Part shown: positions 16,065 through 16,916 of the stretch, one piece after another | How positions within the stretch are numbered: the stretch's first letter is position 1 | Layout: every line of letters starts with the position of its first letter | Assembly: GCA_947165115.1 (NCBI GenBank) | Contig: CAMUZD010000002.1 | Location: 1-33,418, forward strand | Source: an uncultured Clostridia bacterium | Lineage (GTDB): Bacteria; Bacillota; Clostridia; Oscillospirales; Acutalibacteraceae | Direction of reading: 5' to 3' | DNA: 33,418 bases | Notes under the pieces: generated by a model | The model's database searches: none | What the model was told of the DNA's origin: nothing | Seen by the model: the letters and a program-made list of their open reading frames with translations, nothing else | Program-made: the position numbers and the translations under genes

Positions 16065-16916
16065 TTAAAACGCCGAGTTTGCCGGTTCCGGATTGCCGCC
16101 ATCTTCTTTTTCTCTGGTTGTTCTTCCGAAACCCTGTTTTTCAAGCTCCTCGATTTTTGTTTTCTGCTCTTCAACCGCCTTTTTCAGCTCCGCGATCTCC
16201 GCGTCTTTCGGCGCAACCGCTTCATCGATCATCTTTTTTACCTGTTCTTCACTCATCTTGTTCTCCTTCTTTTCGTTACCTAAAATAAAGTCCTTGAGCG
16301 ATTCAACGCCCTTATTGATTGCTTCAACTATTGTCGTTCTGCCTTCCGCTGACTCCGTCTGTTGCGCCGAATTGGATTCGGCATTTGCATCGCCGGAGGA
16401 TTTCTCCACTTCCGTCTTCATCGCGCTGCCGAACATCGAAACCCCGGTTATTTCGCCGTTTTTGATTTTGTCCCAGATCTCGACATCTCTGATCTTGATT
16501 ACAACGCACCATGCGCCGTCTTTCGTTTCCGGAAATTCATCTATTGATCCGCGCTTGATGAAACTTTCGACTATTATTGATCCGTTGGGATTCTGATTAT
16601 GCTCCGTGTCAACGCATTCCTGCCTGTACTGATTAAGGAAAAGGTGACACGCCTTTTCAATTTCACCCGCTTCCGCGAAATCACCCTGGCTATCCACCGT
16701 GTCCGGCTCATAAACAGTCGCAAAAACCAAATGTTTTTCGTCGTCACTTTTCTTGATCGCCGCCGCCACCTTAAACTTCGTTGATTGCGCCGGATTGGAT
16801 CCGGCATTTGCATCGGCACTCTTAAACACAATCCCTTTCTCATTCGCCGGATTCTCGACCAGCGAAATAAATTCGATCCTTATCTCTGTCAGCTTTTTCT
16901 TTCCCATTCCGTTCTC
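16065..16916 (-). CDS. XkdF-like prohead protease/scaffold protein
   Basis: MGKKKLTEIRIEFISLVENPANEKGIVFKS... XkdF-type N-terminus; coiled-coil C-terminus (EIAELKKAVEEQKTKIEELEKQ); upstream of capsid; start approximate. Confidence 0.78.
   Translation of the reverse strand, partial: ENGMGKKKLTEIRIEFISLVENPANEKGIVFKSADANAGSNPAQSTKFKVAAAIKKSDDEKHLVFATVYEPDTVDSQGDFAEAGEIEKACHLFLNQYRQECVDTEHNQNPNGSIIVESFIKRGSIDEFPETKDGAWCVVIKIRDVEIWDKIKNGEITGVSMFGSAMKTEVEKSSGDANAESNSAQQTESAEGRTTIVEAINKGVESLKDFILGNEKKENKMSEEQVKKMIDEAVAPKDAEIAELKKAVEEQKTKIEELEKQGFGRTTREKEDGGNPEPANSAF
16361..16391 (+). repeat. palindromic mini-element (coding, in XkdF-like gene)
   Basis: GTTGCGCCGAATTGGATTCGGCATTTGCATC; translated DANAESNSAQ on minus strand. 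Confidence 0.85.
16780..16814 (+). repeat. palindromic mini-element (coding, second copy in XkdF-like gene)
   Basis: GTTGATTGCGCCGGATTGGATCCGGCATTTGCATC; translated DANAGSNPAQST. Confidence 0.88.

What the first reader, a model, noticed from the sequence alone, without database searches (positions are those of the whole stretch)
16361..16814. Palindromic elements inserted in frame in phage structural/regulatory proteins, always in the same reading frame
In coding sequence the element is always read as D-A-(N/S)-A-x-S-N-x-A-Q. Examples are the XkdF-like protein twice (DANAGSNPAQST, DANAESNSAQQT), sheath (DASAGSNPAQLT), the 117-aa membrane protein (DASAAMKSQ, diverged), the HTH protein (NAESNSAAMNG) and the small TM protein C-terminus (DANAE*). 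A constant frame across unrelated proteins suggests the element is tolerated as a protein linker, or is selected or mobilised as a translatable module. In the TM protein the element supplies the stop codon.
Basis: partly seen in the sequence, partly recalled or inferred. Interest (0 to 1): 0.8.

Follow-up and report, generated by a model that had tools for sequence, protein, structure and literature searches.

The report
Hairpin repeats inserted in phage proteins
A family of transposable (Mu-like) phages, several from ruminant gut samples, carries dozens of copies of a short hairpin-forming DNA repeat, lodged between genes and, in frame, in floppy linkers of structural and replication proteins; the copies differ between close relatives and always point the same way along the phage genome, as if a strand-specific process put them there.

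Summary
It is a 7-bp hairpin with a 3-nt loop and AT-NNN-AT loop closure, followed by a conserved tail, GCAAYRRACGAAgctcAGcGGT. I found about 12 copies in the window and 98 in 13 related contigs, at 33 or more sites. It is absent from the rest of the window's MAG, 36 same-genus genomes, 18 more distant Mu-like phage contigs and INPHARED. Stem arms covary strongly. "Always the same frame" fails: 22 in-gene copies use all three frames (14/3/5). Inserts in XkdF and sheath fall in predicted disordered linkers; close relatives lack an insert or carry other repeat-like peptides at the same sites. All copies keep one polarity along the phage genome, including about seven sites where genes run the opposite way. 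That argues against a purely translational role and suggests strand-specific, perhaps replication-linked, insertion. It works like Rickettsia palindromic elements in giving in-frame insertions, but is shorter, polar and phage-confined, with no mobiliser found. New variant of a known kind; how it moves is inferred, not shown.

The parts
16767..16814 (-). element copy in the XkdF-like gene, linker 1 (DANAGSNPAQSTKFKV), directly before the S78_2 peptidase domain
16344..16391 (-). element copy in the XkdF-like gene, linker 2 (DANAESNSAQQTESAE), after the peptidase domain
7490..7537 (-). element copy in the tail sheath gene (DASAGSNPAQLTESEV)
13909..13959 (-). diverged copy in the 117-aa membrane protein gene; stem GCGAT-GAA-ATCGC; hairpin read in frame f2
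14613..14661 (-). junction copy between the capsid gene stop and the 129-aa gene start (14612)
24777..24825 (-). diverged copy at the C-terminus of the 130-aa protein gene (RMESGGMNGT), frame f2
27240..27290 (-). diverged copy in the GemA-like gene (IAGYNPTAINGD); hairpin part missing in G068
27444..27491 (-). junction copy directly before the GemA-like gene; the orthologous junction is empty in G068
27547..27594 (-). junction copy overlapping the stop codon of the DUF3164 gene
32111..32161 (-). copy in the linker of the Mu-type transposase (KIADKIREQQTKQAE), hairpin in frame f1
32340..32387 (-). junction copy that ends the small TM protein (DANAE*) and lies before the transposase start
32615..32663 (-). 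copy with one extra base after the stem in the HTH protein gene (NAESNSAAMNGT)

Best explanation
The element is a short (about 45-50 nt) non-autonomous palindromic repeat confined to one clade of Mu-like phages. It is a hairpin plus a conserved 3' tail. It reaches new sites by insertion, nested insertion or recombination. Selection then leaves copies only where they do little harm: gene junctions, and disordered linkers or protein ends, where they are translated if they keep the frame open. The frame read as DANAxSNxAQ is favoured because it gives a small hydrophilic linker. At junctions the tail is sometimes tuned into a ribosome-binding site, and stops in the element can end the upstream gene. 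Every copy has the same polarity along the phage genome, even where local genes are inverted, so I infer that copies arise on one particular strand, for example as single-stranded hairpin DNA during one-directional replication of the transposing phage. Shown: family, structure, sites, frame use, site polymorphism, polarity. Inferred: that polymorphism reflects gain and not only loss, why one frame is favoured, and the strand-specific route. Unknown: the mobilising enzyme.
For: Hairpin and tail family with covarying stems. Confined to this phage clade. Presence or absence between close relatives: 18-codon in-frame element in the MuB-like N-terminus absent in G066 with flanks 98/93%; 51-nt in-frame difference inside an older copy in the transposase linker; junction before the GemA-like gene filled in the window and empty in G068. 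Inserts lie in linkers, and other repeat-like peptides sit there in 65-90% identical homologues. All three frames occur. All copies share one polarity, including about seven sites among oppositely oriented genes, with one in-gene antisense copy.
Against: No mobilising enzyme, target duplication or newly moved copy was found. Most orthologous copies are as conserved as their flanks, so movement is not frequent, and direction of change is not proven for single sites. Constant polarity could instead reflect a polar DNA function. Covariation could come from selection on the hairpin or from quasi-palindrome correction.
Confidence: 0.6

Rival explanations
1. A functional intercistronic translation element, like the start-associated sequences of cluster K mycobacteriophages: a hairpin plus built-in ribosome-binding site between stop and start codons. 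In-gene copies would be by-products.
For: Many copies lie between a stop codon and a start codon. Start-proximal copies have GAGG/AAGG-type ends in 15 of 20 cases against 20 of 47 elsewhere (p = 0.018).
Against: Copies among oppositely oriented genes keep genome polarity and are antisense. Many copies are inside genes. The orthologous junction is empty in G068.
Confidence: 0.15
2. A polar DNA-level site that the phage needs along its genome (replication priming, packaging, or binding by a regulator as with stoperators), scattered in one orientation because its function is directional.
For: Perfect polarity over 33 or more sites, conserved tail and conserved loop closure.
Against: Sites come and go between close relatives. 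Stem sequence varies freely as long as it pairs. Nested copies occur within one protein linker.
Confidence: 0.12
3. A REP-type element moved by a Y1 (RAYT) transposase of the host acting on lagging-strand hairpins.
For: The hairpin has the same shape as some REPs (for example GTAGCCCGGATGCAATCCGGG). One host MAG has a Y1 transposase next to its own REPs. Y1 enzymes work on the lagging-strand template, which would give polarity.
Against: No GT(A/G)G head. No Y1 transposase in the own MAG, in the five viral contigs, or in four of the five other element-bearing MAGs. Host chromosomes lack the element outside phage-like contigs. The REP beside the one Y1 gene is a different palindrome.
Confidence: 0.08
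4. Chance or convergent low-complexity linker sequence, not a repeat element.
For: Linker peptides rich in A, N, S, Q and T are common.
Against: The same nucleotide consensus occurs in coding and non-coding copies, with zero expected from shuffles, and pairing covaries.
Confidence: 0.01

Closest known systems
Rickettsia palindromic elements (RPE)
   Same: Palindromic, non-autonomous repeats found inside unrelated genes in frame.
   Different: RPEs are about 150 bp in a bacterial chromosome (PMC10969869). This one is about 45-50 nt, phage-confined, has constant polarity, and is found at gene junctions as well as in genes.
Start-associated sequences (SAS/ESAS) of cluster K mycobacteriophages
   Same: Phage-cluster repeat, mostly one orientation, upstream of gene starts, some with inverted repeats (PMC3203893).
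   Different: SAS lie almost all directly before starts; here many copies are in genes, and those among inverted genes are antisense.
REP elements with RAYT transposases
   Same: Short hairpin of similar size, scattered copies.
   Different: No GT(A/G)G head, no cognate Y1 transposase found, often within genes (PMC2817692).
MITEs
   Same: Short, non-autonomous, sometimes fused in frame to genes (PMC10969869).
   Different: No terminal inverted repeats common to the copies and no target duplication seen; orientation is not random.

Membership tests
Rickettsia palindromic elements | in-frame insertion into unrelated genes | tested here: met
   XkdF, sheath, transposase, MuB-like, GemA-like, HTH and other genes
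Rickettsia palindromic elements | about 150-bp element of one of the known RPE families in Rickettsia | tested here: not met
   about 45-50 nt, found only in a phage clade of other hosts; direct sequence comparison with RPE families was not run
REP/RAYT | GT(A/G)G head next to the hairpin | tested here: not met
   aligned copies against the REP definition
REP/RAYT | cognate Y1 (RAYT) transposase flanked by the repeats | tested here: not met
   the only Y1 gene found sits beside another REP. MAGs are incomplete
SAS/ESAS | located immediately upstream of gene starts | tested here: not met
   only part of the copies; many in genes or antisense
SAS/ESAS | sequence GGGATAGGAGCCC | tested here: not met
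   consensus differs
MITE | terminal inverted repeats | tested here: inconclusive
   one nested copy has AACCG/CGGTT ends; not general
MITE | target-site duplication | tested here: inconclusive
   none at the clean 51-nt site; other sites too diverged
Known RNA families (Rfam 15) | match at gathering threshold | tested here: not met
   0 hits in the window

The most novel reading that the evidence does not exclude
A phage-specific hairpin element copies itself only onto one strand of the replicating phage genome, by a single-strand, fork-coupled route without a Y1 transposase. Together with other palindrome families it keeps re-filling the same disordered linkers of virion and replication proteins, so that palindromic DNA supplies the linker diversity of a phage lineage.
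Probability: 0.25. Interest if true: 0.8.

Novelty: new variant of a known kind. Interest (0 to 1): 0.6.

Why it matters
In-frame palindromic insertions are best known from Rickettsia. Here they occur in a phage lineage at high density (about one per 3 kb), with filled sites, missing sites and rival repeat-like peptides at the same protein linkers among close relatives. That gives a natural series for studying how new linker peptides enter essential proteins. The strict genome-wide polarity is a testable clue that insertion is tied to one DNA strand during phage replication.

Tried and rejected
Constant-frame module: rejected, all three frames occur. Purely sense-strand or ribosome-binding element: rejected as sole explanation by the antisense copies among inverted genes. 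Y1/RAYT mobilisation: no enzyme in own MAG, phages or most hosts. Known RNA family: none. Host-chromosome repeat: no clean copy in own MAG outside the contig, none in 36 same-genus genomes. Led nowhere: the RNA model used only 4 pairs and was not pursued; covariation was tested directly instead. XkdF and sheath scans of viral contigs gave only one close relative, so protein homologues were used. Literature searches found no report of this family in phages, but the library lacks most subscription journals.

Full report
What was checked. The named copies are there. A 30-nt consensus has 5 matches with up to 3 mismatches in the window and none in shuffles. The window is a whole contig (33,418 nt) of a 2.07-Mb, 70% complete MAG. 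It carries a transposable phage: Mu-type transposase, DUF3164, terminase, Mu F-like protein, XkdF protease, P2-like capsid and tail sheath.

Anatomy. Starting from the tail only, GCAA[TC]N[GA]AC[GA][AG]A, 109 hits in 13 related contigs include 87 with at least 6 of 7 complementary pairs directly upstream, against 1.5% at random positions. The element is a 7-bp stem with a 3-nt loop and near-invariant loop-proximal A-T and T-A pairs, then the tail ending in gctcAGcGGT. The five outer stem pairs vary. Twelve different 5-nt arms each have a perfect partner, and dealing the 3' arms anew among copies lowers pairing strongly (0.95 to 0.59 at position 1). This could reflect selection on the hairpin or template-switch correction of quasi-palindromes; the data do not separate these.

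Distribution. Relatives with the element are five viral contigs and five MAGs, found by pattern scans; several MAG records are named for ruminant samples. Clean copies are absent elsewhere in the own MAG, in 36 same-genus genomes, in 18 more distant Mu-like viral contigs found through DUF3164 and in INPHARED. A phylum sample of 399 genomes gave only two single, poorly paired hits besides the window. So it belongs to one phage clade.

Frame. I tabulated 22 in-gene copies from distinct places or versions. The tail phase is 13/1/8, because small length differences between hairpin and tail shift it. From the consensus, the favoured frame is the one with the most potential stops (TAA across the loop, TGA in the tail), so stop avoidance does not explain the preference. 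A hydrophilic A/N/S/Q/T peptide is my explanation, an inference.

Filled and empty sites. In the MuB-like gene three phages carry KDANVRMESARNERNQETMQKV near the start codon and G066 lacks it, with flanks 98% and 93% identical. In the transposase linker G062 and G067 have a 51-nt insert with ends AACCG/CGGTT inside an older copy, and G065a has the uninterrupted sequence, with no target duplication. The junction before the GemA-like gene is filled in the window and empty in G068, and the hairpin inside that gene is also missing in G068. At one junction with flanks 97% and 100% identical, G069 has the element and G060 a different sequence. Direction of change is not proven for each case. Most orthologous copies are as conserved as their flanks.

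Other repeats at the same linkers. XkdF homologues 65-90% identical carry, at linker 1, DANAGSNPAQSTKFKV, or DDPAHNMQPEQTLSKV, or SDISIFRNFDIST-like, or SAASGSRDNGIPESRKEW; at linker 2, DANAESNSAQQTESAE or DLTPTPLHDGEGQDVETFPETS; distant homologues have a shorter link. Sheath homologues show the same kind of exchange, and distant ones lack the segment. That these are translations of other palindromic repeats is inferred from the peptides. Predicted structures place the window's inserts in low-confidence stretches: XkdF 35-49 and 170-197 around a confident peptidase domain (Pfam S78_2 at 50-166), sheath 135-151. Variable alignment columns also lower confidence there, so this is supportive rather than decisive. 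The sheath model matches solved contractile sheaths such as pyocin R2.

Polarity. The 98 copies, at 33 or more sites by flank clustering, lie on one strand of each contig, the strand of the transposase gene where that gene is present. In G060 (17.8-25.1 kb), G062 (9.0-16.2 kb) and G069 (15.9-23.3 kb) a gene cassette runs the other way, yet the elements there keep the genome polarity and are antisense to the genes, mostly in the gaps between them. One is inside a gene and is read antisense at its N-terminus, MTTTDTLSIAPDIIRHLQSAD. Gene calls in these contigs are from my own simple script, and I removed chance hits by hand after inspection; the tail-only scan, done without that step, gives the same polarity for every well-paired hit. 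Polarity therefore does not follow transcription. A strand-specific origin is the simplest account; a polar DNA function is the main alternative.

Junction copies. Many junction copies start at or next to a stop codon and end with a ribosome-binding-like tail before the next start. Start-proximal copies have GAGG/AAGG-type ends in 15 of 20 cases against 20 of 47 elsewhere (p = 0.018), which suggests local tuning after arrival.

Comparison. In-frame palindromic insertions are established for Rickettsia palindromic elements (PMC10969869). The present element works like them but differs in length, polarity, host type and sequence. It is not shown to be a REP: no GT(A/G)G head and no cognate Y1 enzyme (PMC2817692). 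It is not a start-associated sequence in the sense of PMC3203893, because many copies are in genes or antisense. I therefore call it a new variant of a known kind, with the mobilising mechanism open.

Noticed in passing
13413-13459, 16925-16971, 26930-26976: A second repeat family (CCCTAAATTCCCTAAG-like, between GCCGC...GCGGC arms). Two copies are translated at protein C-termini (EIGNLENLGCSWNLGSGDNAL in 13398-13904; EFRESKEFKEFNGGE in the GemA-like protein); a homologue (P0006) has a different tail there.
   Followed up: partly
9279-9308 and 16997-17026; L086: A third palindrome (CCCGCGCTCCGACAA) is a REP-like repeat with 4-23 matches in related host MAGs and lies beside a Y1 transposase gene in G069.
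   Followed up: partly
whole window: In the own MAG that REP occurs only in this contig, unlike in the other element-bearing MAGs; the contig may be misbinned or come from another host lineage.
   Followed up: no
972-1762: A D12-class adenine methyltransferase is split over two overlapping ORFs (972-1418 and 1412-1762), each matching one half of the Pfam profile; it looks broken or frameshifted.
   Followed up: no
33309-33415: Tandem repeats of about 21 and 43 nt at the contig end, perhaps transposase-binding sites at the phage end.
   Followed up: no
G069:C53 near 37016 versus G060 (L042): Flanks 97% and 100% identical over 200 nt each, but the 52-55 nt junction between them is wholly different: a recent local replacement of unknown mechanism.
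   Followed up: partly
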